Source: Acuticoccus sp. MNP-M23 (lineage in GTDB: Bacteria > Pseudomonadota > Alphaproteobacteria > Rhizobiales > Amorphaceae). From it: DNA of 64,000 bases. The stretch spans positions 4,332,501-4,396,500 of the forward strand of contig NZ_CP133480.1 in assembly GCF_031195445.1 (NCBI RefSeq), in the 5' to 3' direction. Below are positions 4,439 to 61,788 of this stretch, piece by piece. A model generated the notes under the pieces. The model saw nothing but the letters and a program-made list of their open reading frames with translations, had not been told where the DNA came from and did not search any database. Numbering within the stretch: the first letter of the stretch is position 1; each line of letters opens with the position of its first letter. Position numbers and translations under genes: made by a program.

Positions 4439-4477
4439 TCGGATCAGTATAGATCGAATTGATAGAGGTGGGTCTGA

Positions 4478-5041: not shown

Positions 5042-5049
5042 AGGCCGCC

Positions 5050-6147
5050 ATGTTTGTACGACTGACCCTCGCCATCGTGATCGCAGGTGCCATTGCCGCC
5101 TGGATGTGGAGCGGCACTTTTGTCGTGTCCGGCAGTGCCGAAGAATCCGAGATCCGCCCGCCAGCAGAACGCTCCGAGGCAGACACCACGCTGTTTCAGG
5201 TGCGCGTTCTCAAGCTCGATGCCGAGGAGCGCAAGCAAACCCTGGTGATGCGCGGGCGGACCCGCGCCAACGCGACGGTCGAGGTGGCCGCAGAGACCAC
5301 CGGCCGCGTGGAAGAGCGCCCGGTGGAACGCGGTTCGGTTGTTGCCAAGGGCGATATATTGTGCCGGCTGGACCCCGGCGTGCGCGACACCGAGCTTGCC
5401 AAGGCAGAGGCCGAAGCTGCAAAGGCCAAGCTCGATTTCGATGCAGCAACGAAGCTGCAGGGCCGCGGCTTTGAATCGCAGACCCGCGTTGCGGCGACCC
5501 GCGCATCGCTGGATTCGGCCAATGCCTCCGTTGCCGCAGCAGAGCAGGAGAAGGAGCGCGCCAACATCCGTGCGCCCTTCGACGGCGTGGTCGAAGACCC
5601 GTTGACCGACGAAGGCAGCGTTCTGGGGGTCGGCCAGCTGTGCGCAACCGTCGTCGATGCCGATCCCATCGTGGTGACCGGACAGGTCACCGAACGCGAC
5701 ATTGCCAGGATCGAACGCGGCGCAACCGCCGCCGTCGCGCTGGTCACGGGCGAGAGTGTCACCGGCGAGATCTCGTTCATCTCCCGCACCGCCGACGAGA
5801 ACACGCGCACCTTCACCGTCGAGATCCGCATTCCCAACGCCGACCTGTCGCTGCGCGCCGGCGTCACCGCCGAAGCCGAGATCCCGCTGCCCGGCGTGCG
5901 CGCCCACCGCCTGTCGCCCGGCGTCCTCACCCTGTCGGACAGTGGCGCCCTTGGCGTGCGCACGGTGGATGGCGACGGCATCGTCTCCTTCATGCCGGTG
6001 AAGATTGCCGGACAGGACAATGACGGCTTCTGGGTGACGGGGCTGCCGGACAAGATCGATGTCATCACCGTGGGGCAGGACTATGTGATCAACGGCCAGA
6101 AGGTCGACCCGGTCTACGCCGAACAACGGCTGGGAGACGGCGCATGA
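5050..6147 (+). CDS. RND efflux periplasmic adaptor (membrane-fusion protein)
   Basis: 365 residues with one N-terminal hydrophobic segment (about 2-28) that anchors or exports the protein, followed by barrel-sandwich and alpha-hairpin segments (RGRTRANATVEVAAETTGRVEERPVERGS pattern split by a coiled coil near 105-165) and a beta-barrel domain (IRAPFDGVVEDPLTDEGSVLGVG). It links the inner-membrane pump to an outer-membrane channel. No TolC-type gene is in the window. Its stop overlaps the pump start by 4 bp (ATGA), indicating translational coupling. Confidence 0.93.
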   Translation: MFVRLTLAIVIAGAIAAWMWSGTFVVSGSAEESEIRPPAERSEADTTLFQVRVLKLDAEERKQTLVMRGRTRANATVEVAAETTGRVEERPVERGSVVAKGDILCRLDPGVRDTELAKAEAEAAKAKLDFDAATKLQGRGFESQTRVAATRASLDSANASVAAAEQEKERANIRAPFDGVVEDPLTDEGSVLGVGQLCATVVDADPIVVTGQVTERDIARIERGATAAVALVTGESVTGEISFISRTADENTRTFTVEIRIPNADLSLRAGVTAEAEIPLPGVRAHRLSPGVLTLSDSGALGVRTVDGDGIVSFMPVKIAGQDNDGFWVTGLPDKIDVITVGQDYVINGQKVDPVYAEQRLGDGA

Positions 6148-46984: not shown

Positions 46985-48675
46985 AGCACGTCCTCCGGAA
47001 AATGACGCAGAAGGTGGGCAACGGAGTTGGACGCTGCCTGCCCCAGGCCGCAGATGGAACTGTCGCGCATCACCACCATCAGCTCCTCGGCAAGGTCGCG
47101 GTCGAGATCGCCTGCCTCCAGCATGCGCACCATCTTGTCGGTGCCGGAGCGGCACGGGGTGCACTGGCCGCAGCTTTCGTGCCGGAAAAAGCGCATCAGG
47201 TTCACCGCCGCGTCGTGGATGGAGTCCTGGTCGGACAGCACGATGAGCGCATGGCTGCCGACGAAGCCGCCATGCCTTTCAAACGTGCCGAAATCGAGCG
47301 GAAGATCGGCCATGGACGCCGGCAGAATGCCGCCCGATGCACCGCCCGGCAGGAAGGCCTTCAGCCTTTGCCCCGGTGCCATGCCGCCGCAATAATCCTC
47401 GATCAGCCGGATCACCGGAATGCCGGCAGGGGCGAGCTTCACCCCCGGCTCGGCGACACGGCCGGAGACGGAATAGGAACGCAGGCCGGCGTGGTTCTCG
47501 TCCCATCCCTTGGCGGCAAAGGCCTCCGCCCCGTCTGACAGGATGGTCGGCACCCAAAGCAGCGTTTCGATATTGTGATTGAGCGTCGGCCTGCCGAACA
47601 GGCCGACTTCGGCAATGTAGGGCGGCCGGTGGCGGGGCAGACCGCGCTTGCCCTCGATGCTCTCGATCATCGCGGATTCTTCGCCGCAGATGTAGGCGCC
47701 CGCGCCCCGCCGCAACTCGATGGGCGCATGGCGGGAAAGCCCGGCGGACTGCAACGCCGCAATTTCGCTGCGCAGGATCTGGAGCACCGCCTGATACTCG
47801 TCGCGCATGTAAAGATAGATGCGCTCCGCCTCCACCACATGCGCGGCAATGAGCGCGCCCTCCAGCATCCGGTGCGGGTGCCGCTCCAGCCAGTAGCGGT
47901 CCTTGAAGGTGCCGGGCTCGCCCTCGTCGCCGTTGATGGTCATCAGACGCGGACCTGGATAGCCGCGCACGAAACCCCACTTCTTGCCAGCCGGGAACCC
48001 CGCGCCGCCAAGGCCCCGCAGCTTTGAGTCCGACATGGCGGCGATGGCGTCTTCACGGCTGATTTCGCCGGACAGGACGCGCGCCAGCGTCTGATAGCCG
48101 CCGGCATCGCGGTAGGCGGACAGGCTTTCGTAGTCCGGCACGCGGGCGGCGAGCGGGCCGGACGCCACGTTGAACAGCCATTCGGCGCTGGCACGGTCGA
48201 CCGCGCGGTGGCCCACATGGGCCGCGGGCGCCGTGTCGCAGCGGCCGATGCAGGGCACGGTGACGACGCGAAGCCGCGCAGGGTCGGCGCGCGCCGTGAC
48301 CGCTTCCGTCAGCGCCGCGGCGCCCGCCATCTGACAGGGCAGCCCGTCGCAGATCCGGATGGTGACGGGCGGCGGGACGTCATCGTCGGCCACGATTTCG
48401 AAATGGTGGTAGAAGCTTGCCACCGCATGAACGTCGGCCTGCGACAGCCGAAAGATCTCGGCAAGGGCCGCCAGATGGCGGGCGCGAAGGCATCCGGTGC
48501 CGTCCTGGATCAGATGCAGCGCCTCGATCAGAAGGTCACGCCGGATCGGCAACGGGCCGAGCAGCGCGTGCACGTCGGCCAGCGCGGTCTCGTCCACCTG
48601 CCGCCCCTTCGGCGTTGCCGGATTGCGCCGGGCGTGCCGCTCTCCGCGACGTCCCTCGACGATGACTTCAGACAT
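46981..48675 (-). CDS. fdsB: Formate dehydrogenase gamma-beta fusion (FdsG-FdsB)
   Basis: 564 residues from the ATG at 48675 (GGGGAAAG upstream). Residues ~25-160 are a NuoE/FdsG-like 2Fe-2S domain with cysteines in RICDGLPCQMAG and VPCIGRCDTAP. From ~200 on is the NuoF/FdsB-like flavin domain: RGLGGAGFPAGKKWGFV, NGDEGEPGTFKDRYWLE, ICGEESAMIESIEGKRGLPRHRPPY and the 4Fe-4S set in [13 protein letters not shown] plus SICGLGQA. It passes electrons from FdsA to NAD. In many species these are separate genes. Divergent from frmA. Confidence 0.93.
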   Translation of the reverse strand: MSEVIVEGRRGERHARRNPATPKGRQVDETALADVHALLGPLPIRRDLLIEALHLIQDGTGCLRARHLAALAEIFRLSQADVHAVASFYHHFEIVADDDVPPPVTIRICDGLPCQMAGAAALTEAVTARADPARLRVVTVPCIGRCDTAPAAHVGHRAVDRASAEWLFNVASGPLAARVPDYESLSAYRDAGGYQTLARVLSGEISREDAIAAMSDSKLRGLGGAGFPAGKKWGFVRGYPGPRLMTINGDEGEPGTFKDRYWLERHPHRMLEGALIAAHVVEAERIYLYMRDEYQAVLQILRSEIAALQSAGLSRHAPIELRRGAGAYICGEESAMIESIEGKRGLPRHRPPYIAEVGLFGRPTLNHNIETLLWVPTILSDGAEAFAAKGWDENHAGLRSYSVSGRVAEPGVKLAPAGIPVIRLIEDYCGGMAPGQRLKAFLPGGASGGILPASMADLPLDFGTFERHGGFVGSHALIVLSDQDSIHDAAVNLMRFFRHESCGQCTPCRSGTDKMVRMLEAGDLDRDLAEELMVVMRDSSICGLGQAASNSVAHLLRHFPEDVL

Positions 48676-48864
48676 CAGAACCGCTTTCCCCAGCTGGAAT
48701 AATTCGAAGACTGCCCATTTGCGCGGTCCGCGTCGAGAGTGCATTCGCAGCAGGCGGCGCTCTGCGCAAATGCGGCCCGAACAGCCTTGCGGAGGCAGCA
48801 CGATCCGACACTTCGTCCGCCCTCCATTCTGCTGCTCGCTTGCATCAGATCGGTGAAGTTGTAA

Positions 48865-50025
<1,161 letters not shown>

Positions 50026-50080
50026 CCGGCCGCGCCGGCGCCAGCCGCCGGCGCTCCCCTTCGACAGACTGAAAGCGCTC

Positions 50081-50917
50081 ATGGAAATCATCTCGAAAGT
50101 CGCCGCGCACGGCGGACGGCAACTCGTCGTCAAGCACGCGTCACGCGCGACGGACACGGACATGACCTTCGCCGTCTTCCTGCCGCCGCAGGCCGATCGC
50201 TCGCCGTGTCCCGTGCTGTGGTACCTGTCCGGCCTCACCTGCACCCACGCCAACGTGATGGAAAAGGGCGAGTACCGGAAGGCTGCCGCCAGGCATGGCA
50301 TCATCGTGGTCTGCCCCGACACCAGCCCCCGCGGTGAAGGGGTCGCCGATGCGGACGGCTACGACCTTGGCAAGGGCGCCGGCTTTTACGTGGATGCGAC
50401 CGAGGAGCCCTTCTCGCAGAATTACAACATGAAGACCTACGTGCAGGACGAGCTGCCCGAGGCGATTGCCGACAATTTCCCGGTGGACATGGCGCGCCAG
50501 GGCATTTTCGGCCATTCCATGGGCGGGCACGGCGCGCTCACCATTGCGCTGCGCCACCCCCGCCGCTTCCGCTCGGTGTCCGCATTTGCGCCCATTGTGG
50601 CGCCCTCGCAGGTGCCGTGGGGACAGAAGGCATTTCCGGCCTATCTGGGCAACGACAAGGCCCAGTGGCGGCGGCACGATGCGGTCGCCCTCATCGAGGA
50701 CGGCGCCCGCGTCGCGGACATTCTGGTCGACCAGGGCGACGCGGACAATTTTCTGGCCGAGCAGCTCAAGCCGGAGCTTTTGAAAAAGGCCTGCGCCGAT
50801 GCCAGCATCCCGCTCAAGCTGCGGATGCAGCCCGGCTACGATCACTCCTACTACTTCATCTCCAGCTTCATGGCAGACCACATCGACTGGCATGCCGAGC
50901 GGCTGAAGCGCCGCTGA
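50081..50917 (+). CDS. frmB: S-formylglutathione hydrolase
   Basis: 278-residue serine esterase that releases formate and glutathione. Ser146 is in GHSMGGHGAL, LSGLTCTHANVMEKG and PDTSPRGEGV are family motifs, the aspartate lies in DQGDADNFL and the histidine in GYDHSYYFISSF. It follows frmA on the same strand, completing the glutathione route from formaldehyde to formate; the formate is then handled by the divergent fds genes. Confidence 0.97.
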   Translation: MEIISKVAAHGGRQLVVKHASRATDTDMTFAVFLPPQADRSPCPVLWYLSGLTCTHANVMEKGEYRKAAARHGIIVVCPDTSPRGEGVADADGYDLGKGAGFYVDATEEPFSQNYNMKTYVQDELPEAIADNFPVDMARQGIFGHSMGGHGALTIALRHPRRFRSVSAFAPIVAPSQVPWGQKAFPAYLGNDKAQWRRHDAVALIEDGARVADILVDQGDADNFLAEQLKPELLKKACADASIPLKLRMQPGYDHSYYFISSFMADHIDWHAERLKRR

Positions 50918-50933: not shown

Positions 50934-51320
50934 TCAGGCCGGGCCGATCAGGTCCATCACGTTGCCGAACGGGTCGCGAAACTTGGCGACCATGCCGTAG
51001 GGCTCGCTGCGCGGCGTTTCCAGAAATTCGACGCCGGCGGCGAGAAGCCACGCGTGGTCGGCGGCAAAATCGTCCGCGTGGAAAAACAGGAAGCAGCGGC
51101 CGCCGGTCTGGTCGCCGATGCGGCCTTGCTGGCGCTGATCCGCCGCGCGGGCCAGGAGGATCCCACCGCCTCCGCCGGGGGACACGACCACCCAGCGCTT
51201 CATTTCATCTACCTTCTCGTCGCGCACCAGCGCGAGGCCCAGAACGCCGCAGTAAAAGGCGATGCCGGCATCATAATCCGGCACCACCACGGCAACGAGG
51301 TCGAGGCGGTTGATGGCCAT
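50934..51320 (-). CDS. VOC (glyoxalase/bleomycin-resistance fold) family protein
   Basis: 128 residues from the ATG at 51320. Two beta-alpha-beta-beta-beta units: INRLDLVAVVVPDYDAGIAFYCGVLGLALVRDE and RCFLFFHADDFAADHAWLL, then EPYGMVAKFRDPFGNVMDLIGP. The usual first metal ligand (His in the first strand) is replaced in this opening by Asp/Leu, so metal binding is uncertain and no reaction can be assigned. It starts 8 bp after the aminotransferase stop, suggesting co-transcription with it. Confidence 0.85.
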   Translation of the reverse strand: MAINRLDLVAVVVPDYDAGIAFYCGVLGLALVRDEKVDEMKRWVVVSPGGGGGILLARAADQRQQGRIGDQTGGRCFLFFHADDFAADHAWLLAAGVEFLETPRSEPYGMVAKFRDPFGNVMDLIGPA

Positions 51321-51328
51321 GGGCGCTC

Positions 51329-52666
51329 TCAGACCGCCGCGAGGGTCGCGGCCAGTGCGTCGGCAAAGAAGTCGGCCTCGTCGGTCGTGAGGCAGAGCGG
51401 CGGGCGGATCTTGAGGGTGTGCCCGGCGGGTCCGGCGGCGCCGATCAGAACGCGGCGTTCGCGCAGGCCGTTGGTGACCCTCGTGGCAAGGTCGCCATCG
51501 GGCAAGGCCGGGTCGCCATCGCGGCAAAGGTCCGCGCCGAGGAAGAGCCCCGCACCGCGCACATCGGCCAGCCGCGCATCACCGGCCTGCACGGCCTTCA
51601 GCCGCTCCAGCAGATACGCGCCCACCGTACCGGCATGGGCAACGCGCTTCTCCTTCTCGATCACCTCCAGCACCGCAAGACCGGCCGCGGCCGCAGGCGG
51701 CGTTGCGGCGAAGGTGTTGAAGTAGCCGATATCCTCGCAAAAGCGGTCCAGCAGCGCGGGCGTGGTCACCATCGCGGCCATCGGGTAGCCGTTGCCCATC
51801 GGCTTTCCCATGGTCACGATATCCGGCGAAACCCCGTGCCGCTCAAAGCCCCACATGTTGCCGGTGCGGCCAAAGCCCGGCTGCACCTCGTCGGCAACAT
51901 AAAGCCCGCCGGCGGCGTGCACTGCCGCCACCGCCGGTGCCAGAAAGCCGGGCGGACCGGGGTAGACGCCATCGCTGGAAAAGATCGAGTCGGCCACGAA
52001 CCCCGCCAGCGGATAGCCGCGGCGCTTCAGCGTGTTGATGGCCCGCTTCACATGGCGCGCAAAGCCGCCCTCGATGTCGTCGCCATAGTTGCGTGCCGAT
52101 GGCGCCGGCACGGTTTTCACATGGGCCGGCGGCTTGCCACGCTTCAGCGACGACGGCGAGATCTCGATCACCGCCGACGTGTTGCCGTGATACGCCGTCT
52201 CGGTGACGATGAAGCCGGTGCCGCCGGTGTTGGCGGTGGCAACGCGGATCGCAAGGTCGTTGGCTTCGCTGCCCGTGCAGGTCATTGCCACGTTGGAGAG
52301 GTGGTCCGGCAGGGTTGCGGTCAGCCGCTCCAGGTAGGTTTCGGTGGTGCGGTGGAGATAGCGCGAGTTGATGTTGAGCGCTGCGATCTGCTTCTGCAGC
52401 GCCTTGACCACCCGCGGATGGCCGTGACCGACCGACGGAACGTTGTTGTAGAAGTCCAGGTATTGCGTGCCGTCGGCAGCTTCCAGCCAGGCACCGCGGC
52501 CGCCCACCATCTCGATCGGCTGGCGGTAGAACAGCACCGATGCGGCGCCCACATTGGCCAGGCGCCGGGCCAGCAGCCCGTCCGCGTGCGCCCCGGCCTC
52601 CCGGCGGTCGAACGCGTTCATGTCCAGGATCTGTCGCGGTTTCGGCGCAATGCGTTTTGCGGTCAT
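51329..52666 (-). CDS. Class III PLP enzyme of the phospholyase (AGXT2L-like) branch
   Basis: 445 residues. VLFYRQPIEMVGGRGAWLEAADGTQYLDFYNNVPSVGHGHP and LNINSRYLHRT resemble the AGXT2L1/2 branch, whose human members eliminate phosphate and ammonia from phosphoethanolamine or 5-phosphohydroxylysine rather than transaminate. CTGSEANDLAIRVA is the PLP phosphate loop, VADEVQPGFGRTG has the ring-binding Asp, and the Schiff-base lysine is in TMGKPMGNGYP. The start overlaps the kinase stop by 4 bp. A true aminotransferase remains possible. Confidence 0.87.
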   Translation of the reverse strand: MTAKRIAPKPRQILDMNAFDRREAGAHADGLLARRLANVGAASVLFYRQPIEMVGGRGAWLEAADGTQYLDFYNNVPSVGHGHPRVVKALQKQIAALNINSRYLHRTTETYLERLTATLPDHLSNVAMTCTGSEANDLAIRVATANTGGTGFIVTETAYHGNTSAVIEISPSSLKRGKPPAHVKTVPAPSARNYGDDIEGGFARHVKRAINTLKRRGYPLAGFVADSIFSSDGVYPGPPGFLAPAVAAVHAAGGLYVADEVQPGFGRTGNMWGFERHGVSPDIVTMGKPMGNGYPMAAMVTTPALLDRFCEDIGYFNTFAATPPAAAAGLAVLEVIEKEKRVAHAGTVGAYLLERLKAVQAGDARLADVRGAGLFLGADLCRDGDPALPDGDLATRVTNGLRERRVLIGAAGPAGHTLKIRPPLCLTTDEADFFADALAATLAAV

Positions 52667-53652
52667 CGGGCAAGATACGCTTTTGCAAGGCGCAGCGTGC
52701 CGTCGGTGTAGCCGACGCCCAGCTCCTGCGCCGTGGGTGTTTCGGCATGGCTGGCAAGCCAGGCGGTGAGAAGGAGCCGGCGCAGCATCACGAACGTGGG
52801 CAGCATCGCCTCCTCCGCAGCGTTGACGGGAGCAACGGTGCGATAGCCTTCAAGCCACGCCGCCTGCCAGGCCGGCAGCGCCGGGTCTTCCTCAAAAAAG
52901 GACACCGCGGCGGCAAAATCGTACATGAACCAGCCGAAACCGCAGTCGTCGAAGTCGATCACGCCGATGTGGCCGGTCTCGTCCACCAGAAGGTTGGCAA
53001 GGCGAAGATCTGCGTGGATGAGGCCGAAGCGGTCGCGGCCGGTGCCGTATTCCGCCAGAACGTCGCGCAGCACTGTCGTGGTTTCTTCCAGCAGCGCCCG
53101 GCCCTCCGCGGTGAGGCCGATGGCGGCCCGCCAGTCGCCCCAATGGGGGAGCGCACCCACCGTCGTGTCAAAATTCCAGACCTTGCGCTCGAACCATTCC
53201 GGCGCCTGCCAGCTGCGCGCATGCCCGTGGAGCCGCGCATTGATGGCGCCCAGCTGGCGAAAGCCTGCAACCAGCCCCTCCCCGTGCGCCGGTTCCACGC
53301 CGGGCATGAAGGCGAAGGCCACGACGTCCCGCCCCGCGCCGTCCGCGTCGAACCCGGCAATGTGCCCACCGCTGCGGCAGACGAGCGGCGCCGGAATGTC
53401 CACCACCCGGTCCGCCCGCAACGCCTCGATCCACGCCAGCTCCGACTCGATCTCGCGCCGCGTATGATAGCCGGGCCGGTGGACGCGCAGGATCACCGGC
53501 GCCTGCCCGGCGGCGTCGGCCCGGAATGTGGCATTCTCCGACACGGTGAGGAGGCTGACGTCGGCGTGCTCCGACAGCCCCCATTCGCTGACCAAGGATT
53601 GGGCACCACGGCGCAGCTCTTCGATGAATTTGTCCTCGTAAAGCCCCGCCAT
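52663..53652 (-). CDS. APH/choline-kinase-fold small-molecule kinase (hydroxylysine/ethanolamine kinase-like)
   Basis: 329 residues from the ATG at 53652. The N-lobe has SENATFRADAAGQAPVILRVHRPGY with the ATP-binding lysine region replaced by Arg (LRVHRP), as is common in this branch. The catalytic loop is GLIHADLRLANLLVD (HxDxxxxN) and the metal motif is VIDFDDCGFGWFMYD. Kinases of this type often stand next to phospholyase-like enzymes in bacteria; human AGPHD1 phosphorylates hydroxylysine. The pair suggests phosphorylation then elimination. Divergent from the ABC importer. Confidence 0.85.
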   Translation of the reverse strand: MAGLYEDKFIEELRRGAQSLVSEWGLSEHADVSLLTVSENATFRADAAGQAPVILRVHRPGYHTRREIESELAWIEALRADRVVDIPAPLVCRSGGHIAGFDADGAGRDVVAFAFMPGVEPAHGEGLVAGFRQLGAINARLHGHARSWQAPEWFERKVWNFDTTVGALPHWGDWRAAIGLTAEGRALLEETTTVLRDVLAEYGTGRDRFGLIHADLRLANLLVDETGHIGVIDFDDCGFGWFMYDFAAAVSFFEEDPALPAWQAAWLEGYRTVAPVNAAEEAMLPTFVMLRRLLLTAWLASHAETPTAQELGVGYTDGTLRLAKAYLAR

Positions 53653-53841
53653 CTCTGCCTTTTCACTTTCCCGACTGGTTCGTACAAATGCTATCGGCGC
53701 CGCATCACCTTCGCAAGAATTTTGCTCTTGCGCTGAAAATTTGCGCAGGACACGATACATTTAACAAATCGCGATCCTCCCGCCGCGAACTCTGCTGCCG
53801 GCCGACCCCGGCACTTGCGCAACCTTCCGAAGGAGAATGTC

Positions 53842-54978
53842 ATGTCGCTGACCCGCCGCCGCTTTACACAGGGCGCCGCCGCGCTCGCTGGCATGGGCGC
53901 CTTCGCCGGCTCCCGCGCCGCGCTGGCCCAGACGTCCGACCGGCTGAACATCCTGTGCTGGGAAGGGTACAACACCGACGACGTGCTCTCCCCGTTCCGC
54001 TCCGCCAACCCCGGCGCAACGGTGCGGGCCGAAAGCGGCACGTCCGACCCCGACATGGTCAACAAGCTGCGCGCCGGCGAGGTGAAGGTGTGGGACCTCA
54101 TCAACCTCAACCAGCCATGGGCCCGCCAGCGGCTTTACCCCGAAGGCCTGATCAAGCCGCTCGATAAGGCGCGCTTCATGCCCTATTTCGAGAAATACAT
54201 GACCGGGTTCACCAACCCGCCCTACCCGCTCGCCTTCGCCGACGATGGCGAGCTGATCGGCATGCCGCAGCGCTTCGGCCCGTTCTCCTTCGTGGTCAAC
54301 ACCGACAAGATCAGCCGCGAGATGGCCGAGGACCAGGGCTGGAAGCTGTTCCTCGATCCCGCCATGAAGGACCGCTACGGCGTTCTCACCTATGACAACT
54401 GGAACGTCATGCACATGTGCCTGACGGGCGACCAGGACCCGTTCAAGCCCATCGAAGGCGCGGGCCTTGAAACCTTCAAGTCCACCGCCGAAACCATCTT
54501 CGGTGGCGCCAAGCTCCTGTCCGACGATCTGGTGGCGATGAACACAGCGCTCATCAACGGCGAGATCGACGCCTACTTCACCGGCGGCACCTACACCGCC
54601 TCCCCGGCGCGGCTGGACGGCCTCACCAACATTCGCGGCATCACCCCGAGGTCCGGCCCGCTGGACGGCAAGGGCGGCGTGGTGTGGATCGAGCTGACGT
54701 CGGCGGTGAACAACCCCGATCCGTCCACCCTGGCGGAAGACTTCCTGGAGTTCGTCCAGCAGCCCGAAATCTGCAAGGCGGTCGGCTTTGCGGAAGGCAC
54801 CTACAACCCGGTCTGCCAGATGGGCGACCAGGCCGTGTTCGACCAGTGGGACGCCGACGAGCTGGACGCGATCCAGTGGGACAGCCTTGAGGAGGAGATG
54901 GCGAACTCCGTGGAATACCAGGTGGTGGCCTCCTACGACGAACTGTCGAAAATCTACAACGCGGCCAAGCGTGGCTGA
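53842..54978 (+). CDS. ABC importer substrate-binding protein (polyamine-type, Tat-exported)
   Basis: 378 residues from the ATG at 53842 with AAGGAGA 6 nt upstream. A twin-arginine signal is visible (LTRRRFTQGAAALAGMG, cleavage near ALAQ). The mature protein has the PotD/PotF-like fold: LNILCWEGYNTDDVLSPF, GEVKVWDLINLNQPW, PQRFGPFSFVVNTDKIS and GEIDAYFTGGTYTAS. The ligand cannot be read from sequence; the family binds putrescine, spermidine and other small amines. First gene of the importer operon. Confidence 0.92.
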   Translation: MSLTRRRFTQGAAALAGMGAFAGSRAALAQTSDRLNILCWEGYNTDDVLSPFRSANPGATVRAESGTSDPDMVNKLRAGEVKVWDLINLNQPWARQRLYPEGLIKPLDKARFMPYFEKYMTGFTNPPYPLAFADDGELIGMPQRFGPFSFVVNTDKISREMAEDQGWKLFLDPAMKDRYGVLTYDNWNVMHMCLTGDQDPFKPIEGAGLETFKSTAETIFGGAKLLSDDLVAMNTALINGEIDAYFTGGTYTASPARLDGLTNIRGITPRSGPLDGKGGVVWIELTSAVNNPDPSTLAEDFLEFVQQPEICKAVGFAEGTYNPVCQMGDQAVFDQWDADELDAIQWDSLEEEMANSVEYQVVASYDELSKIYNAAKRG

Positions 54979-56092
54979 CACGGGCGCCGCGACCACTGCG
55001 CCGTCCGAGCCGGCGGCGCAGACCAACCAGCCGATCCTCACCATCGCCGGGCTCGAAAAGACGTTCGGCACGTTTACCGCGCTGCACAGCGTGGACCTCA
55101 AGGTCCGCGAGGGCGAGTTCCTGACCATTGTCGGCCCGTCGGGCAGCGGCAAGTCCACCCTCATCCGCCTGCTGGTGGGGATGGACGAGCCCACCGAGGG
55201 CACCATCTGGCTGCGCAACCAGCGGATCGACACCGTGCCCGCCGCCAAGCGGCCCACCTGCATGGTGTTCCAGTCGCTCGCCCTTTTCCCGCACCGCTCG
55301 GTGGGCCAGAACATCGAGTTCCCGCTGAAGATCCGCGGCGTCGGCAGCGCCGAGAGAAAGGCGCGCGCGCTGGAACTCCTTGCCCTCCTGCGGCTGCCGT
55401 CGGACTATTATGGCAAGCGCATCCAGCAATGCTCCGGCGGCGAGAAGCAGCGCGTGGCACTCGCCCGCGCGCTGGCGTTCGACCCCGAGATCCTGTTCTT
55501 CGACGAGCCACTCTCCGCGCTCGACTATCGCCTCAGGAAGACGCTGGAGAAGGAGCTGAAGGACCTTCACGACCGCACGGGCAAGACATTCGTCTACATC
55601 ACCCACAGCCTCGAAGAGGCGATGGTGATGTCGGACCGGATCGCCATCATGCGCGCCGGCCGCTTCGAGCAGATCGCCACACCGGACGAGATCTATGCCC
55701 GGCCCAGAAGCCGCTTCGTTGCCGAATTCATGGGCGAGGTGAACCTCTTCGAGATCCGCGCCACCGAAGCCGGCGTGACCTGTGACGGCGTGACCCTCAA
55801 TCCGGATGCCGCTGCCCGCCTCGGTCTTGCGCCCGGCGAGAGCGGCGCGCTGGTCGTCCGCCCCGAAACGCTGCACTTCCTCCCGCCCGACGGCGATGCG
55901 GACGCCATCATCGAGGGCACGCTCCACACCGAATATGCGCTCGGTTCGCGCCACCAGTACGAGGTAGACCTGCCCGGCGGCGGCAAGCTCACCGCCGAAG
56001 TTCTGCGCGAGGACCGGGTGAATGTCGGCCCCGGCGCGCCGGTGCGGCTCGGGTGGGATCTTGCCACCGCCCACATCATTCAGGAGAGCTGA
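54971..56092 (+). CDS. ABC importer ATPase (PotA-like)
   Basis: 373 residues from a GTG at 54971 that overlaps the binding-protein stop by 8 bp. Walker A GPSGSGKSTLIRLL, signature region QCSGGEKQRVALARAL (Cys in place of the usual Leu at the first signature position), Walker B ILFFDEPLSALDYRLRK and switch His in ITHSLEEA. A TOBE-like regulatory domain follows from about 270. Codes for the energy unit of the importer. Confidence 0.93.
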   Translation: MADTGAATTAPSEPAAQTNQPILTIAGLEKTFGTFTALHSVDLKVREGEFLTIVGPSGSGKSTLIRLLVGMDEPTEGTIWLRNQRIDTVPAAKRPTCMVFQSLALFPHRSVGQNIEFPLKIRGVGSAERKARALELLALLRLPSDYYGKRIQQCSGGEKQRVALARALAFDPEILFFDEPLSALDYRLRKTLEKELKDLHDRTGKTFVYITHSLEEAMVMSDRIAIMRAGRFEQIATPDEIYARPRSRFVAEFMGEVNLFEIRATEAGVTCDGVTLNPDAAARLGLAPGESGALVVRPETLHFLPPDGDADAIIEGTLHTEYALGSRHQYEVDLPGGGKLTAEVLREDRVNVGPGAPVRLGWDLATAHIIQES

Positions 56093-56093
56093 G

Positions 56094-56948
56094 GTGGAAC
56101 GACACGACCGCCGCCTTGGCGCCCTTTCGGCAGCACCCGTCGCGGTTCTTCTCGGACTTGGCTTTCTGGCGCCACTTCTTGTGGTGGCGGCGTTCTCGGT
56201 CATGCCGCAGGGCGTCTTCTCGCTCGCCAACACGCCGGATTTCTCGTCCTATGCCGAGTTCGTGCGGCAGGGGTACTGGAAGTCGCTCGCATGGTCGCTC
56301 GGCATGGCGCTGGCGGCGACACTCATCCTCTTTCTCGTTGCGTGGCCGCTGGCCTACGGCCTGGCAAAAATATTCGGCCGCTTCACGCTGGTCCTGACCA
56401 TCTTCGTGGTCCTCTCGCTGTTCGTGTCCGAAAACATCCGCTTGTTCGGCTGGGTGCTGACGCTCATGAAAGGCGGCCTCATCGAGGGCCACTGGCGCGC
56501 GTGGACCGGCGAGGGCTTCGACGGCCTCCTCTACAACGTGCCGGTCATCGTGTTCGGTCTCGTCTACGTCTATTTCCCGTTCATGCTGTTTCCGCTGGCA
56601 CAGGGGATCGCCATGGTGCCGGACGATGCGCGCCAGGCCGCCGCCGACCTCGGCGCCTCCCGCTGGACCATCTTGCGCGAGATCGAACTGCCGCTGGCCG
56701 CCCCCGGCATTGTCGTGGGGTGCCTCCTCTGTTTCGTTCTCTCCGCGGGCGCCATTGCCGAATCGAAGCTTCTGGGCGGACAGGCGGTCATCGTCATTGG
56801 CGACGATATCGAAACCGCGTTCACCTACGGGCAGAACTGGCCGCTGGGGTCGGCGATTGCCGTCGTGCTGATCGTCATCATCGGCGCCTTTGCCCTCTTC
56901 GGCATCAGCCGGGTGGATCTTGATGCGGTGATGGGGCGCAAGCGCTGA
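56094..56948 (+). CDS. ABC importer permease 1 (PotB-like)
   Basis: 284 residues from a GTG at 56094 with AGGAGA 7 nt upstream, 1 bp after the ATPase stop. About six transmembrane helices. The EAA loop that contacts the ATPase is DDARQAAADLGASRWTILREIELPLAAPG, with alanine/aspartate variation at the first position. An earlier in-frame ATG at 56022 lies inside the ATPase gene. Confidence 0.92.
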   Translation: MERHDRRLGALSAAPVAVLLGLGFLAPLLVVAAFSVMPQGVFSLANTPDFSSYAEFVRQGYWKSLAWSLGMALAATLILFLVAWPLAYGLAKIFGRFTLVLTIFVVLSLFVSENIRLFGWVLTLMKGGLIEGHWRAWTGEGFDGLLYNVPVIVFGLVYVYFPFMLFPLAQGIAMVPDDARQAAADLGASRWTILREIELPLAAPGIVVGCLLCFVLSAGAIAESKLLGGQAVIVIGDDIETAFTYGQNWPLGSAIAVVLIVIIGAFALFGISRVDLDAVMGRKR

Positions 56949-57757
56949 TGAAGCCGTCCCGCGCCACCACCATTGCGCTCTACGTCTACGGTATTGTCGC
57001 CATTCTGGTCCTTTACCTGCCGCTGGTGTCGGTCGGGTTCGCGAGCGTTTCCAAGGCGCGCTACCTCACCTTCCCCATCCGCAGATACGCCACCGGCTGG
57101 TACGCCGAAGCCATCGAAAGCCCCACGGTGCACGACCTCGTGGCGACCTCGCTCAAGGTCGCGGTGCTGGTCACCATCATCTCCATGCTGGTGGGTTTTT
57201 TCGGCGCGCTGGCGTTCGCCCGCTACCACTGGCGCTTCCGCAAGACGTTCCAGCAGTTGATCCTCCTGCCGATCTTTTTTCCGCAGACGGTCCTCGGGCT
57301 CGCTCTACTCATGTGGTTCAACGCCATCGGGGTCATCCCCTCATGGCACACGGCGGTGATTGCGCATCTGGTCTGGATCGCGCCCATCGCGACGCTCATC
57401 ATCGCCATTCGCGCCTACTCCTTCGATGCCGCGCTGGAAGAGGCCGCGCGCGACATGGGCGCCTCCACCTTTGTGACGTTGCGCGAAGTGACGATCCCGC
57501 TCCTGATGCCGGGTGTGATCTCGGCCGGGCTGTTCGCCTTCCTGCTGTCGTGGGGCAATTTCCCGCTGTCGCTGTTCACCACGGGTGCCGACTCCACACT
57601 GCCCGAATGGCTCTACGCCAAAATGGTATCAGGCTACTCGCCGCTGGTGCCCACCGTCGGGATATTGTCCATCGCCGCTTCGGTGCTGCTGCTCGCCGTC
57701 GGGCTGACCGTGCCGTGGATCCTGCGCGCCCTCCGGCGCACCGAACCTGGAGACTGA
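56948..57757 (+). CDS. ABC importer permease 2 (PotC-like)
   Basis: 269 residues with about six helices. The EAA loop is LEEAARDMGASTFVTLREVTIPLLMPG. LLSWGNFPLSLFTTGADSTLPEWLYAKM is typical of the PotC branch. It starts within the stop of permease 1 (TGATG), so the two are coupled. The dehydrogenase gene follows 1 bp later. Confidence 0.93.
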   Translation: MKPSRATTIALYVYGIVAILVLYLPLVSVGFASVSKARYLTFPIRRYATGWYAEAIESPTVHDLVATSLKVAVLVTIISMLVGFFGALAFARYHWRFRKTFQQLILLPIFFPQTVLGLALLMWFNAIGVIPSWHTAVIAHLVWIAPIATLIIAIRAYSFDAALEEAARDMGASTFVTLREVTIPLLMPGVISAGLFAFLLSWGNFPLSLFTTGADSTLPEWLYAKMVSGYSPLVPTVGILSIAASVLLLAVGLTVPWILRALRRTEPGD

Positions 57758-57758
57758 C

Positions 57759-58538
57759 ATGCTGACCCCCATTTCCGGCCGTTCCACCATTGTCACCGGC
57801 GCCTCCAAGGGCATCGGCAAGGGAATTGCCGCCGTGTTCGCCAAAGCCGGCGCCAAGGTGATGGTGGTGGGCCGCAACGAGGCGGACGGTCTTGCCACCG
57901 TGGAAGCGCTGCGCGCGGCCGGCGGCACCGCCGAGTGGTTTGCCGCCGACGTGACCGACTGGGACGCGGTTCAGGCCATGGTCGCCAGAACCACCGAAGT
58001 GTTCGGCGGGGTCGACATCCTGTGCGCCAATGCCGGCGCCTTCCCGCAGACCAAGATCGTCGACATGGACCCCGCCGAGTGGGACGGCGTGATGGCGACC
58101 AACCTGAAAAGCACGTTCCTGTGCGTCAAGGCGTGCATTCCGGCATTCGAGAAGGCGGGCAAGGGGCGGGTCGTCGTCACCTCATCCATCACCGGGCCGG
58201 TCACGGGCTATCCGGGCTGGGCGCACTATGGCGCCTCCAAGGCAGGCCAGCTCGGCTTCCTGAAGACCGCCGCCATGGAGCTTGCCCGCTACAACACCAC
58301 CATCAACGCGGTGATGCCGGGCAACATCATCACCGAAGGGTTGGTGGACCTTGGCGAGGACTACATGAAGGCGATGGCCGCCTCCATTCCGCTCAAGCGC
58401 CTCGGCGCCGTAGAGGACATCGGCAACGCGGCGCTCTTCTTCGCGTCGGACGAAGCCGGCTACGTCACCGGCCAGCAGATTGTGGTCGATGGCGGGCAGA
58501 TCCTGCCCGAATCGCTGGATGCCATTGCCGAAATCTGA
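57759..58538 (+). CDS. Short-chain dehydrogenase/reductase
   Basis: 259 residues, classical SDR. Cofactor motif TGASKGIGKGIAAVFAKAGA; VVGRNEADG after strand 2 suggests NADP preference. LCANAGAFPQ (NNAG equivalent), catalytic Ser in TSSITGP, YGASKAG (Tyr-x3-Lys) and a C-terminal GYVTGQQIVVDGGQILPE are present. FabG-like, but its place in the importer operon points to catabolism of the imported compound, perhaps acting on an aldehyde or alcohol intermediate (inference). Confidence 0.93.
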   Translation: MLTPISGRSTIVTGASKGIGKGIAAVFAKAGAKVMVVGRNEADGLATVEALRAAGGTAEWFAADVTDWDAVQAMVARTTEVFGGVDILCANAGAFPQTKIVDMDPAEWDGVMATNLKSTFLCVKACIPAFEKAGKGRVVVTSSITGPVTGYPGWAHYGASKAGQLGFLKTAAMELARYNTTINAVMPGNIITEGLVDLGEDYMKAMAASIPLKRLGAVEDIGNAALFFASDEAGYVTGQQIVVDGGQILPESLDAIAEI

Positions 58539-58637
58539 CCGCGCCGGTCATCAGACAAACCGCCTGTCCGCAATGGCAGCGGCGCGCGGGGGGCAACCTT
58601 CGCCGTTCGTTGACTTTTGATCCGCGATCTCGAAATC

Positions 58638-59063
58638 ATGCGCGAGCGGCTCGCAACAATTTTGCCCGCGCAACCCCCTTCCAGTGAGGCGAGTGGATTG
58701 AACGAACCCGAAGCGGCCCCGTCCGACGCGTTCACGCTTTACGACCTTCGCGTCGAAATCGTGCGCCGCGGCGAGGGCCGGATCTATTGCGGCAAGGAAG
58801 GCGACTGGTTCGAGATGCGCGGCGAGATGCTGCATCTGCCGGACGGACAGGGCTTTTCCATCTATTCCCTGTCCGCCGTCCTGCCGCTCATTGCCGCCAA
58901 GCAGCGCGAGACCGCCCCCAACGACTGGATGTCCACCGACGCCGAAGTCGCCTGTCCGGACCCGAACTGCCCCGGCCAGCTGCGGATCACCCGCATCGGC
59001 AAACGCACATTCAGCCACGCCGACACAACCGCCGTTCCCCTCGGCGCCAAGGACACGAAATGA
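58638..59063 (+). CDS. TIGR04076-like small protein
   Basis: 141 residues from the ATG at 58638; a TTG at 58698 with GAGG 8 nt upstream gives 121 residues and may be the true start. The conserved part YDLRVEIVRRGEGRIYCGKEGDWFEMRGEMLHLPDGQGFSIYSLSAVLPLIAAKQ resembles TIGR04076 proteins, which have no known function. A CPDPNCPG element near residues 105-112 could bind a metal. It overlaps the aldo/keto reductase start by 4 bp. Confidence 0.75.
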   Translation: MRERLATILPAQPPSSEASGLNEPEAAPSDAFTLYDLRVEIVRRGEGRIYCGKEGDWFEMRGEMLHLPDGQGFSIYSLSAVLPLIAAKQRETAPNDWMSTDAEVACPDPNCPGQLRITRIGKRTFSHADTTAVPLGAKDTK

Positions 59064-60112
59064 CCGCCATCGAGACCGCATCGCTGCGCCCCGGCTACCA
59101 GATCAGCCGCCTCATCAAGGGCGGGTGGCAGCTGGCCACCGGCCACAGCGATGCGGCCAGCGCCAGCGCCACCGCCGAGATGGGCGACTACCTCGACGCC
59201 GGCGTGACGGCCTTCGACTGCGCGGACATCTACACCGGCGTGGAAGAGAAGATCGGCGACTTTCGCCGCGACGCCATGGCGAACGGCAACGATGCGCAGC
59301 TTGACCGCCTCAAGGTCCACACCAAGTGCGTGCCGGACCTTGGCAAGCTTGCGACCATCACCAAGGCGGACGTGGAAGCAACCATCGACCGCTCGTTGAA
59401 GCGGCTGTCCGCCGAACGGCTGGACCTCGTCCAGTTCCACTGGTGGGACACCGACGTGAAGCGGTACGTGGAAGTTGCAAGCTGGCTTTCCGACTTTCAG
59501 AAGGCCGGCAAGATCGACCTCCTCGGCACCACCAACTTCAACACGGACTGCATGGACGAGCTGGTTTCCTCCGGCTTCGATGCCGCGGCGATCCAGCTGC
59601 AATTCTCCCTTCTGGACCGGCGGCCCACCAAGCGGATGGTGGATTTCTGCGCCGAGCGAAACATCAAGATCCTGTGCTACGGCACGGTGGCGGGCGGCTT
59701 CCTGTCGGACAGGTGGCTGGGCGTTGCCGAGCCAGCCGGCCCGCTCGAAAACCGCTCGCTGGTCAAATACCGGCTCATCATTGAAGACATGGGCGGCTGG
59801 GACGCGTTTCAGGCATTGCTCGCCACACTGCGCGCCATCGCCGACAGGCACGGGGTGGACATCGCCTCGGTGGCCATGCGGGCGATGCTGGCGGAGCCGC
59901 AGGTGGCGGGCATCATCGTCGGCGTGCGCCATGGCGGCCACCTTGGCCGCCATGCTGCCCTGTTCGATCTCGTTCTGGATGCCGAAGACCACGCAAAAAT
60001 CGACGCAGCGCTTGCCGAAGCGACGCCGTTGGAGGGCGACGTCTTCGATCTGGAGCGCGACAAGACCGGGCGCCACGGCTCGATCATGAAGTACAATCTC
60101 AACGCCGCCTGA
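59060..60112 (+). CDS. Aldo/keto reductase
   Basis: 350 residues from the ATG at 59060 (ATGA overlap with the preceding gene). TIM-barrel AKR with FDCADIYTGVEEKIG (Asp/Tyr of the tetrad), KVHTKCVPD (Lys) and LVQFHWWD (His). NADPH-dependent in most relatives; substrate unknown. It ends the plus-strand operon that starts at the importer, and is convergent with kynA (18-bp gap, no hairpin). Confidence 0.9.
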   Translation: MTAIETASLRPGYQISRLIKGGWQLATGHSDAASASATAEMGDYLDAGVTAFDCADIYTGVEEKIGDFRRDAMANGNDAQLDRLKVHTKCVPDLGKLATITKADVEATIDRSLKRLSAERLDLVQFHWWDTDVKRYVEVASWLSDFQKAGKIDLLGTTNFNTDCMDELVSSGFDAAAIQLQFSLLDRRPTKRMVDFCAERNIKILCYGTVAGGFLSDRWLGVAEPAGPLENRSLVKYRLIIEDMGGWDAFQALLATLRAIADRHGVDIASVAMRAMLAEPQVAGIIVGVRHGGHLGRHAALFDLVLDAEDHAKIDAALAEATPLEGDVFDLERDKTGRHGSIMKYNLNAA

Positions 60113-60130: not shown

Positions 60131-60964
60131 TCAAAGCTCGCCGCGCAGGTGCCACAGCTCGGGAAACAGCTCCACTTCCAGCATCTTGCGCAGATATTTG
60201 ACGCCGCTGGTCCCGCCGGTGCCGCGCTTGAAGCCGATGATCCGCTCCACCGTGGTCACGTGGTTGAACCGCCAGCGGCGGAAATAGTCCTCAAGGTCCA
60301 CAAGCTTCTCGGCCAGCTCATACAGCGTCCAATGGCGGCCGGTATCCCGGTAGACCATGCGCCACGCCCGCTGGACTTCGGCGTTCGGCTGATGCGGGCC
60401 TTCCAGCGCGAACACATCCGCGTCAAACTCAATCCCGGTTTCAGCGGACAGAAGGCGCAGCGCGGCGTGGTAGAGCGAAGGGCGGGCAAGCTCGGCGGAG
60501 AGCTTCTGGTGGATCTCGCTCCGGTGGTCGTGGACCTTCATCATCGCCGTGTTGCGGTTGCCGAGCATGAACTCGATCATCCGGTACTGGTAGGACTGGA
60601 AGCCGGACGAGGCGCCAAGGTCATCGCGGAACGTGGTGTAGTCGCTCGGCGTCATGGTGCGCAGAACGTCCCAGCTGTTGTTCAGCTGCTCGAAGATGCG
60701 CGCAACGCGGCTCAGCATCTTGAACGCCGGTGCACAGTGGCCGGCTTCGAACTCGGCCCGCGCGGCACCGACCTCGTGCAGCACCAGCCGCATCCACAGC
60801 TCGCTGGTCTGGTGCTGGATGATGAACAGAAGCTCGTCATGCGCGTGGGACAGCGGGTGCTGGGCGCGTAGAATGTGGTCAAGGTCCAGATAATCACCGT
60901 AGCTCATATCGTCCTTGAAGGACATCTTGGCGCCTTCGGAGCCGGGGTCGTAGCCCTTGGCCAT
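60131..60964 (-). CDS. kynA: Tryptophan 2,3-dioxygenase
   Basis: 277-residue haem enzyme converting L-tryptophan to N-formylkynurenine, first step of the kynurenine pathway. [18 protein letters not shown] and [19 protein letters not shown] are diagnostic, with distal His51. Proximal haem ligand is His235 in [23 protein letters not shown]. Probably transcribed with the formamidase gene 11 bp upstream. Kynureninase is not in the window. Confidence 0.97.
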
Positions 60965-60975
60965 GGTCTTTGTCC

Positions 60976-61788
60976 TCAGTCGACGAGTGCGCGGGTGAGC
61001 GGACTGTCCGGATCTGCAAGCTGGGTAACGACGGTGAAGTGATTCTTCCCCTCGTCATAGCGCTGCGGTAGCGGGCGGCCCCCCGGCCGCCAGGCTTCGC
61101 TCATCAGGCGGGTCTGACGCAGAAACTCGGGCCGCTCGTTGGCGCCCACCCAAAGCAGGATCGGGATTTCGCCTCTGCGCTCCAGACGTGCCGGACTTTC
61201 GGCGGCGGCCTCTTCGGCGGTCAGGCGCAGCTTGTCGTTCATTTTAATGGCGAGGAGCGGGGTCAGGTCGAAGACGCCGCTCAGCGGAATGATCCGCTCG
61301 ATGCGGGCGCTGACATCGGCGTCCAGCGGGACATCGGTGCACGCCATGCGCGCCACCAGATGGCCGCCGGCCGAATGCCCGATCAGCCGCACCGGCCCGG
61401 CCACGGCGCCTGCGGCACAGTTGATGGCGGCCGCCACCTCGCGTGTGATCTCTGCAATGCGGGCCTCTGGTGCCAGCGTGTAACCGGGAATGGCGACCGC
61501 CCAGCCAGCCGCCAGCGCGCCTTGCGCAAGATGCGACCAGTATGAGCGGTGGAGCGAATGCCAGTAGCCGCCATGAACGAAGACGACGAGGCCGCGCGCC
61601 TCCCCTTCGGGGCGGAAGAGATCGAGCTGATTGCGCTCTTTCGTGCCGTAGGTCAGCGTTTCAAACGTGCCGTCCGGGCGCGCGCCGCGAAACGAAGCGG
61701 CAATTTCGGCCCAGGCGTCCGGATCACGCTCCTCCTGCGGAACGTGGACCGAATTCACGAAGGCATCGTCCCAGTCAATCATCGTCAA
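60976..61788 (-). CDS. kynB: Kynurenine formamidase (alpha/beta hydrolase type)
   Basis: 270 residues. HGGYWHSL (residues 72-79) is the oxyanion motif seen in eukaryotic-type arylformamidases; the nucleophile is Ser139 in GHSAGGH, and His250 in EGKNHFTVV completes the site. Adjacency to kynA supports hydrolysis of N-formylkynurenine to kynurenine. It is not the metal-dependent KynB of Pseudomonas, so the symbol is by role only; a general esterase is the alternative. Confidence 0.82.

What the first reader, a model, noticed from the sequence alone, without database searches (positions are those of the whole stretch)
50934..60112. Candidate uptake-kinase-phospholyase pathway for an amino alcohol
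A phospholyase-type PLP enzyme overlaps an APH-fold kinase by 4 bp. Divergent to them runs an operon with a polyamine-type ABC importer, an SDR, a TIGR04076-like protein and an aldo/keto reductase. In animals the equivalent kinase/phospholyase pairs break down hydroxylysine or phosphoethanolamine, giving an aldehyde. Here the two oxidoreductases could process that aldehyde. A complete bacterial module of this composition may be undescribed.
Basis: partly seen in the sequence, partly recalled or inferred. Interest (0 to 1): 0.72.

Follow-up and report, generated by a model that had tools for sequence, protein, structure and literature searches.

The report
Aminopropanol breakdown genes without a shell
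This stretch carries an importer and three enzymes that most likely turn a small amino alcohol (1-amino-2-propanol, or its precursor aminoacetone) into propanal, ammonia and phosphate, a bacterial route already known in outline from protein-shelled microcompartments, here present without the shell.

Summary
The PLP enzyme is a phospholyase by sequence: it falls in a supported clade with two solved phospholyases, apart from the seven other class III enzymes found in its genome. The substrate guess is probably wrong. The kinase's best solved match is 6ef6 and the dehydrogenase's 6ci8/6ci9, which I recall as the (S)-1-amino-2-propanol kinase and dehydrogenase of the Mycobacterium smegmatis RMM/Aaum microcompartment; five recalled ligand residues of the dehydrogenase are kept. 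The likely route is aminoacetone <-> 1-amino-2-propanol -> its phosphate -> propanal + NH3 + Pi. Kinase, lyase, dehydrogenase and PotD-clan importer recur together in Agrobacterium fabrum C58 and two other fetched loci. The two oxidoreductases do not look like an aldehyde-processing pair: the SDR fits the step before the kinase, and the aldo/keto reductase belongs with TIGR04076 to another cassette (0 of 16 other sampled genomes with this reductase have the kinase). It is a new member of a known kind. The stranger lead lies outside the window: related loci keep dehydrogenase and kinase but pair them with shell genes and a different class III PLP enzyme, and the kinase tree shows repeated swapping.

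The parts
52663..53652 (-). APH-fold kinase, predicted (S)-1-amino-2-propanol kinase
   Evidence: best solved match 6ef6 (282 bits, E 4e-83; listed as aminoglycoside phosphotransferase, known to me as aminopropanol kinase) against 54 bits for amicoumacin kinase; HxDxxxxN and DFDD motifs invariant in 13 sequences, window included; kinase tree
51329..52666 (-). Class III PLP enzyme, predicted 1-amino-2-propanol-phosphate phospholyase
   Evidence: 5g4i 339 bits and 6tor 322 bits, next family 176 bits; phospholyase clade 99/99; clade-specific residues N74, R102, P289, K419
57759..58538 (+). SDR, predicted NADP-dependent (S)-1-amino-2-propanol dehydrogenase (aminoacetone reductase)
   Evidence: best solved matches 6ci8/6ci9 (309 and 306 bits); 59% identical, F95, T145, W154, L195, E251 kept; NCBIfam however names it FabG above cut-off
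53842..54978 (+). Periplasmic binding protein, PotD/PotF clan
   Evidence: profile of 14 sequences hits PotD at 2.9e-11; the single sequence finds nothing in the PDB at 1e-3
54971..56092 (+). ABC transporter ATPase with TOBE_2 domain
56094..56948 (+). ABC permease 1 (PotB-like)
56948..57757 (+). ABC permease 2 (PotC-like)
50934..51320 (-). VOC/glyoxalase-fold protein, 8 bp downstream of the PLP gene; neighbour of unknown role, no match in the fetched related loci
   Evidence: Pfam Glyoxalase 67.7 bits; no match in the loci apart from copies of the window
58638..59063 (+). TIGR04076 protein; part of a separate cassette with the AKR
   Evidence: 61.4 bits, cut-off 33; within 1.5 kb of the AKR homologue in 14 of 16 other genomes
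59060..60112 (+). Aldo/keto reductase; separate cassette with TIGR04076
   Evidence: Pfam Aldo_ket_red; 0 of the 16 other sampled genomes with it carry the kinase

Best explanation
A shell-free aminoacetone / 1-amino-2-propanol catabolic module. The PotD-clan ABC importer brings in a small amine (inferred; most likely 1-amino-2-propanol or aminoacetone). The SDR interconverts aminoacetone and (S)-1-amino-2-propanol with NADP(H) (inferred from homology and kept ligand residues). The APH-fold kinase makes 1-amino-2-propanol O-phosphate. The PLP phospholyase eliminates phosphate and releases ammonia, giving propanal. Propanal would be oxidised towards propionyl-CoA by an aldehyde dehydrogenase encoded elsewhere. 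Shown: gene content, homology, conserved residues, recurrence. Inferred: every reaction and the ligand of the importer.
For: Best solved match of the kinase is 6ef6 and of the SDR 6ci8/6ci9. That these are the M. smegmatis RMM aminopropanol kinase and dehydrogenase is recalled: the listings name them aminoglycoside phosphotransferase and 3-oxoacyl-ACP reductase, and a search for the codes found no relevant paper among the 10 of 12 listed; the two enzyme papers are in the reference list of PMC8007038 and the RMM role is a passage of PMC8156839. For the dehydrogenase, five residues recalled from the abstract match the printed chain at those numbers (5 of 5) and are kept in the window; in 12 of 12 other module SDRs T145, W154, L195, E251 are kept and F95 in 10 (Y in 2); none of 4 other SDRs has F95, T145 or W154. 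PLP enzyme in a 43-row clade (99/99) with both solved phospholyases, in a 10-row subclade (100/99) whose 9 other members lie within about 5 kb of a kinase 46-62% identical to the window's. Same set KIN+PLP+SDR+importer in A. fabrum C58 and in loci L076, L078. In L080 kinase, SDR, amino acid permease, PLP enzyme and an aldehyde dehydrogenase lie together. R. jostii RHA1 has the kinase (41%) and an AGXT2L-type PLP enzyme (44%) among shell genes.
Against: No activity is shown for any gene here. NCBIfam names the SDR 3-oxoacyl-ACP reductase FabG above cut-off (395 bits, cut-off 333; also a second SDR model, 363 against 318), and two uncharacterised SDR entries, 3pk0 (299 bits) and 3rih (279), are close behind 6ci8. 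In 27 kinase loci from genome contigs none has an AGXT2L-type PLP gene in reach and 5 have the SDR (several loci are short), and 10 of the 17 sampled kinase genomes have no lyase gene beside it, so the kinase family also serves other contexts. Three of the 27 sit in cobalamin gene clusters (Pfam on L013; L016 and L026 by shared gene clusters), where Rhodobacterales use an L-threonine kinase (PMC8123684 passage). Kinase and lyase without the SDR in reach sit beside an annotated ethanolamine permease in Chimaeribacter, so ethanolamine cannot be excluded. No threonine dehydrogenase above cut-off in the genome to make aminoacetone (best 154 bits, cut-off 458, which only 2 of 14 control genomes pass), no close shell-type aldehyde dehydrogenase in it, and no match to the L080 aldehyde dehydrogenase in the window.
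Confidence: 0.75

Rival explanations
1. The same enzymes act mainly on ethanolamine: kinase makes phosphoethanolamine, the lyase gives acetaldehyde, and the SDR is an unrelated passenger.
For: The lyase clade includes human ethanolamine-phosphate phospholyase 6tor and phospholyase 5g4i (that 5g4i acts on phosphoethanolamine is recalled); Chimaeribacter has lyase and kinase beside an annotated ethanolamine permease.
Against: The SDR keeps the five recalled aminoacetone-contacting residues and is beside the kinase in 8 of the 9 sampled genomes that have it. An ethanolamine route needs no such SDR.
Confidence: 0.14
2. Hydroxylysine: kinase makes 5-phosphohydroxylysine and the lyase gives an aldehyde of lysine breakdown.
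For: Analogy to the animal kinase/phospholyase pair only.
Against: Best matches are the entries recalled as aminopropanol enzymes; in the lyase tree the human ETNPPL groups with 4 bacterial rows, all from open frames of about 1000 aa, and not in the window's subclade; the SDR has no role in that route. AGXT2L2 itself was not available for comparison.
Confidence: 0.03
3. The PLP enzyme is an omega-aminotransferase and the kinase is unrelated to it.
For: Pfam calls it aminotransferase class III and the plasmid records call its homologues aspartate aminotransferase family protein.
Against: Clade 99/99 with phospholyases, apart from 7 of 7 own class III paralogues and dialkylglycine decarboxylase (some of those sit on long branches); clade-specific residues; 4-bp overlap with the kinase.
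Confidence: 0.03
4. Aldehyde-processing pair as proposed by the first reader: SDR and AKR both act on the aldehyde made by the lyase.
For: Same strand and close spacing in the window.
Against: SDR resembles the recalled aminopropanol dehydrogenase; AKR homologues occur in 16 other sampled genomes, none with the kinase, and sit beside TIGR04076 in 14 of 16. Two of the 16 (G015, G287) do have a lyase-family gene, on other contigs.
Confidence: 0.05

Closest known systems
RMM/Aaum (aminoacetone utilisation) microcompartment of Mycobacterium smegmatis and Rhodococcus
   Same: Kinase and SDR have the recalled RMM enzymes 6ef6 and 6ci8 as best solved matches; the RHA1 shell locus has a homologous kinase and an AGXT2L-type PLP enzyme.
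   Different: No BMC domain found in the window's genome, no match to the tested aldehyde dehydrogenases in the window, and an ABC importer of the PotD clan instead of the amino acid permease described for RMM1 (PMC4207490 passage).
Ethanolamine-phosphate phospholyase / AGXT2L family (5g4i, human ETNPPL 6tor)
   Same: PLP enzyme belongs to the same clade and keeps its specific residues.
   Different: Separate 10-row subclade tied to this kinase type; substrate untested.
Agrobacterium fabrum C58 plasmid At cluster ATU_RS25085-RS25115
   Same: Same kinase, PLP enzyme, SDR and importer genes at 52-60% identity.
   Different: SDR on the opposite strand from the importer; isochorismatase-like gene and DeoR regulator beside it; no match to TIGR04076, AKR or VOC in the 21-kb stretch.
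PotABCD / PotFGHI polyamine importers
   Same: Binding protein profile hits PotD and PotF; permeases PotB/PotC-like.
   Different: Binding protein too distant for a single-sequence match, the Pot models shown for ATPase and permeases all scored below their cut-offs, and the set travels with aminopropanol-type genes.

Membership tests
Phospholyase (AGXT2L/ETNPPL) family | Clusters with characterised phospholyases, not omega-aminotransferases | tested here: met
   43-row clade 99/99 holding 5g4i and 6tor, excluding 7 own paralogues, DGD and PLP2
Phospholyase (AGXT2L/ETNPPL) family | Clade-specific residues and PLP lysine | tested here: met
   N74 in 42 of 43, R102 42 of 43, P289 43 of 43, K419 43 of 43; in none of 11 PLP2 rows (1 gapped at N74, 6 at K419) and none of 9 outgroup rows; columns chosen on the same alignment; MGKPMGNG motif present
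Phospholyase (AGXT2L/ETNPPL) family | Releases phosphate and ammonia from a phosphorylated amino alcohol | not testable with these tools
   needs enzyme assay
(S)-1-amino-2-propanol dehydrogenase | Aminoacetone-contacting residues F95, T145, W154, L195, E251 (recalled from the 2018 abstract; letters checked against the chain printed) | tested here: met
   all five in the window SDR; none of 4 other SDRs has F95, T145 or W154
3-oxoacyl-ACP reductase (FabG) | NCBIfam equivalog PRK05653.2-2 cut-off | tested here: met
   395 bits against 333; the model may cover aminopropanol dehydrogenases, since 6ci8/6ci9 bear the same name, but this was not tested
(S)-1-amino-2-propanol kinase | Closest solved relative 6ef6 and kinase motifs | tested here: met
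   282 bits over 312 residues against 54 for the next; separated from the distant kinases next to other lyases by a 100/100 branch
(S)-1-amino-2-propanol kinase | Substrate specificity for 1-amino-2-propanol | not testable with these tools
   relatives in cobalamin clusters may prefer L-threonine
RMM/Aaum microcompartment | Shell proteins (BMC domain) | tested here: not met
   no PF00936 match in the genome (98.29% complete); the control rings in 2 of 14 genomes, E. coli and Synechococcus
RMM/Aaum microcompartment | Aldehyde dehydrogenase of the shell type | tested here: not met
   best own match 47 bits over 172 residues, second 42 bits
Hydroxylysine kinase / 5-phosphohydroxylysine lyase pathway | Kinase and lyase closest to the animal hydroxylysine enzymes | tested here: inconclusive
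   no hydroxylysine kinase among the 3 solved matches; human ETNPPL (AGXT2L1) is in another branch of the lyase tree; AGXT2L2 itself was not available
PotD/PotF binding proteins | Sequence membership in the clan | tested here: met
   profile E 2.9e-11 to PotD
PotD/PotF binding proteins | Polyamine-binding acidic residues (PotD D168, E171, D257; recalled) | tested here: inconclusive
   positions I read as aligned are D185, N188, E284, all invariant in 14 sequences; one acid replaced

The most novel reading that the evidence does not exclude
One dehydrogenase-kinase set (often with the same importer) for 1-amino-2-propanol/aminoacetone is coupled interchangeably to two different lyase ends: an AGXT2L-type phospholyase free in the cytosol (window), or, in related Alphaproteobacteria and an actinobacterial MAG, a class III PLP enzyme of another lineage that usually comes with a microcompartment shell and aldehyde dehydrogenase. 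Since starred branches of the kinase tree force at least four changes of partner label, the second enzyme would be an unrecognised, independently evolved aminopropanol-phosphate lyase, and the PotD-clan importer a first dedicated aminopropanol/aminoacetone transporter of its kind.
Probability: 0.3. Interest if true: 0.6.

Novelty: new member of a known kind. Interest (0 to 1): 0.34.

Why it matters
It corrects generic annotations (FabG, aspartate aminotransferase family protein, phosphotransferase) towards a specific catabolic route, adds a candidate importer, and gives a natural comparison of the same pathway with and without a protein shell, which bears on why a propanal-forming pathway would need a shell at all.

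Tried and rejected
Rejected: transaminase reading of the PLP enzyme; hydroxylysine; SDR+AKR as aldehyde pair; aminoacetone supply inside the cell via Tdh (no match above cut-off); a shell elsewhere in the genome. AKR neighbours in four genomes (10 proteins) gave branched-chain-type transport proteins in two, DUF3830 and a GGDEF protein in one, an AMP-binding enzyme in one, and no common theme. Binding protein outside the module: 5 of 11 genomes; neighbours looked up at three of those five (10 proteins; L124 was fetched but not looked up, G157 not fetched) gave no common substrate. Paper searches for kinase, lyase, aminopropanol, microcompartment, importer and TIGR04076 found reviews and RMM surveys but, in the titles and passages I saw, no description of this importer; only open-licence PMC text was searched, and the 2018 enzyme papers and the 2012 hydroxylysine kinase paper were not held. 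TIGR04076 is named in one paper (PMC8667426, listing only), not read.

Errors of mine: searches failed on wrong coordinates and were repeated. In one search the L125 row was out of frame and was dropped. The kinase tree lost 14 rows (L029-L032, L050, L059-L067) and was redone. In one search the group label 'BMC_PLP2' includes L001, which has PLP2 but no shell gene in reach, and L011, whose short contig shows shell genes but no PLP2. The ORF caller is crude, so start positions in fetched loci are uncertain. PLP columns were picked from the same alignment that defines the clade.
Full report
What is there. The finding's anatomy is correct. On the minus strand a kinase (52663-53652) overlaps a class III PLP enzyme (51329-52666) by 4 bp, and a VOC-fold gene (50934-51320) follows. 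Divergently, across 189 bp, run a binding protein, ATPase and two permeases, an SDR, a TIGR04076 protein and an aldo/keto reductase.

PLP enzyme. The best solved matches are phospholyase 5g4i (339 bits) and human ethanolamine-phosphate phospholyase 6tor (322 bits); the next family, dialkylglycine decarboxylase, has 176. In a tree of 63 rows it lies in a 43-row clade (99/99) with both phospholyases. The 7 other class III enzymes that one search found in the same genome, dialkylglycine decarboxylase and the PLP2 group (below) lie outside, some on long branches that the program flags. Residues N74, R102, P289 and K419 mark the clade and are kept; none of the 11 PLP2 rows or 9 outgroup rows has them (columns chosen on the same alignment, and some PLP2 rows are gapped there). 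Within the clade it belongs to a 10-row subclade (100/99); the 9 other members lie next to or within about 5 kb of a kinase 46-62% identical to the window's. Reaction type remains inferred.

Kinase and SDR. The kinase's best solved match is 6ef6 (282 bits; next 54). The SDR's are 6ci8 and 6ci9 (309 and 306 bits), with the uncharacterised entries 3pk0 (299) and 3rih (279) close behind and the rest at 182 or less. I know 6ef6 and 6ci8/6ci9 as the aminopropanol kinase and the (S)-1-amino-2-propanol dehydrogenase of the M. smegmatis RMM microcompartment. This link is recalled: the listings give the names aminoglycoside phosphotransferase and 3-oxoacyl-ACP reductase, the papers are named in the reference list of PMC8007038 but not held, and a search for the codes listed nothing relevant (10 of 12 shown). 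Five aminoacetone-contacting residues recalled from the dehydrogenase abstract match the printed chain at those numbers (5 of 5), which supports the link, and all five are in the window's SDR. Of 12 other module SDRs, 12 keep T145, W154, L195 and E251, and 10 keep F95 (2 have Y). None of 4 other SDRs has F95, T145 or W154. Against this, NCBIfam places the window's SDR above the cut-off of a FabG model (395 bits, cut-off 333). I still read it as an aminoacetone/1-amino-2-propanol oxidoreductase acting before the kinase, not on the aldehyde.

Recurrence. In a sample of 289 class genomes the kinase (E <= 1e-50) is in 17, the SDR (E <= 1e-85) in 9, the binding protein (E <= 1e-60) in 11 and the lyase (E <= 1e-60) in 33, the window's genome included each time. 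Of the 9 SDR genomes 8 have the kinase within 7 kb; of the 11 binding-protein genomes 6 have it near SDR and kinase; of the 17 kinase genomes 7 have a lyase gene adjacent (in one, G196, the kinase is only 36% identical) and 10 do not. The full set of kinase, lyase, SDR and importer is on plasmid At of Agrobacterium fabrum C58 and in loci L076 and L078. L080, from the window's order, has kinase, SDR, an amino acid permease, an isochorismatase-like gene, the lyase and an aldehyde dehydrogenase; no match to that dehydrogenase was found in the window. In the window's genus the kinase is in 0 of 7 other genomes held, so the module is patchy. Against the reading: of 27 kinase loci in genome contigs none has the lyase in reach and 5 have the SDR (several contigs are short). 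Three sit in cobalamin clusters (Pfam on L013, the other two by shared gene clusters), where an L-threonine kinase is known in Rhodobacterales (passage in PMC8123684). Kinase specificity in the family may thus vary.

Importer. The binding protein alone finds nothing in the PDB at 1e-3 and only a sub-threshold Pfam match, but a profile of 14 sequences hits PotD at 2.9e-11 and PotF more weakly. At the positions that I read as aligned with PotD residues D168, E171 and D257 (recalled as polyamine contacts) it has D185, N188 and E284, all invariant in the 14. This fits an amine ligand with one acidic contact lost; the ligand is not shown.

TIGR04076 and AKR. AKR homologues (E <= 1e-50) are in 17 class genomes; the 16 other than the window's and the 16 other kinase genomes do not overlap. 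A TIGR04076 gene lies within 1.5 kb of the AKR in 14 of those 16. Two of the 16 (G015, G287) do have a lyase-family gene, on other contigs. The pair forms a cassette of its own that happens to follow the SDR here. The VOC gene has no match in the fetched related loci either.

Mechanism. Most likely: import; aminoacetone <-> (S)-1-amino-2-propanol (SDR, NADPH); phosphorylation (kinase); elimination to propanal, ammonia and phosphate (lyase); oxidation of propanal by an unlinked aldehyde dehydrogenase. The genome has no threonine dehydrogenase above cut-off (a strict cut-off, passed by 2 of 14 control genomes), which mildly favours an outside source. Ethanolamine stays the main rival for kinase and lyase (Chimaeribacter has them beside an annotated ethanolamine permease), at 0.14.

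Known or new. The RMM microcompartment has been proposed to convert aminoacetone to propionyl-CoA (passage of PMC8156839; see also passages in PMC4207490, and PMC6787980). I recall that the 2018 papers also linked shell-free homologues to a phospholyase route and noted how often this kinase accompanies a candidate phospholyase. The window is a shell-free member of this kind: no BMC domain was found in its genome and no match to the tested shell genes in the window. I saw no description of the importer in the searches listed, which cover open-licence text only.

A lead outside the window. Ten loci (L003, L009, L018, L081, L083, L084, L110-L113) carry kinase and SDR (7 of them with the binding protein in the stretch) next to shell genes, an aldehyde dehydrogenase and a class III PLP enzyme, PLP2, that is not AGXT2L-like. 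Pfam was run on ten proteins of L112, L003 and L083 (two of the presumed shell proteins had no Pfam match); the other loci match those genes by tblastn. PLP2 of L112 has putrescine aminotransferase as best solved match (189 bits; 6tor 110). L011 shows shell genes, kinase and SDR on a short contig, and L001 has PLP2, kinase and SDR without shell genes in reach. In a kinase tree of 59 rows (13 with the AGXT2L partner, 12 labelled PLP2/shell, 34 in neither) the AGXT2L label needs 5 changes and starred branches force at least 4; for example L062 (same locus as L080, lyase type) nests among L063, L065 and L066 (PLP2 type) at 100/100. Repeated swapping suggests that PLP2 takes the same phosphorylated substrate. 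A microcompartment catalogue records the RMM2 type outside Actinobacteria (PMC8217296 passage; Paracoccus in PMC8156839), so part of this may already be catalogued; supplements were not available.

Noticed in passing
L003, L009, L018, L081, L083, L084, L110, L111, L112, L113: Microcompartment shell genes, aldehyde dehydrogenase and a non-AGXT2L class III PLP enzyme beside the same kinase and dehydrogenase; possible unrecognised aminopropanol-phosphate lyase.
   Followed up: partly
window 58638-60112; L090-L108: TIGR04076 and this AKR family form a pair in 14 of 16 other sampled genomes with the AKR, none of which has the kinase; function unknown.
   Followed up: partly
L013, L016, L026: Kinase homologues lie in cobalamin biosynthesis clusters (tetrapyrrole methylases, CbiJ, CobB-type; Pfam run on L013 only), perhaps the threonine kinase of the nucleotide-loop pathway.
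   Followed up: partly
L071 (Rhodococcus jostii RHA1 pRHL2) 1549-7038: A block of four shell or hypothetical genes appears twice with identical protein accessions, on either side of the PLP gene.
   Followed up: no
L068, L076, L078, L080, L083, L111-L113, L003, L009: An isochorismatase-like hydrolase recurs near the module; no match to it in the window at E <= 1e-3.
   Followed up: partly
window 46981-50917: FdsB-like NADH/formate dehydrogenase subunit, glutathione-dependent formaldehyde dehydrogenase and S-formylglutathione hydrolase next to the module (names by eye): formaldehyde oxidation, no link shown.
   Followed up: no
window 60131-61788: Tryptophan 2,3-dioxygenase and a kynurenine formamidase-like hydrolase follow the AKR on the other strand (names by eye).
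   Followed up: no
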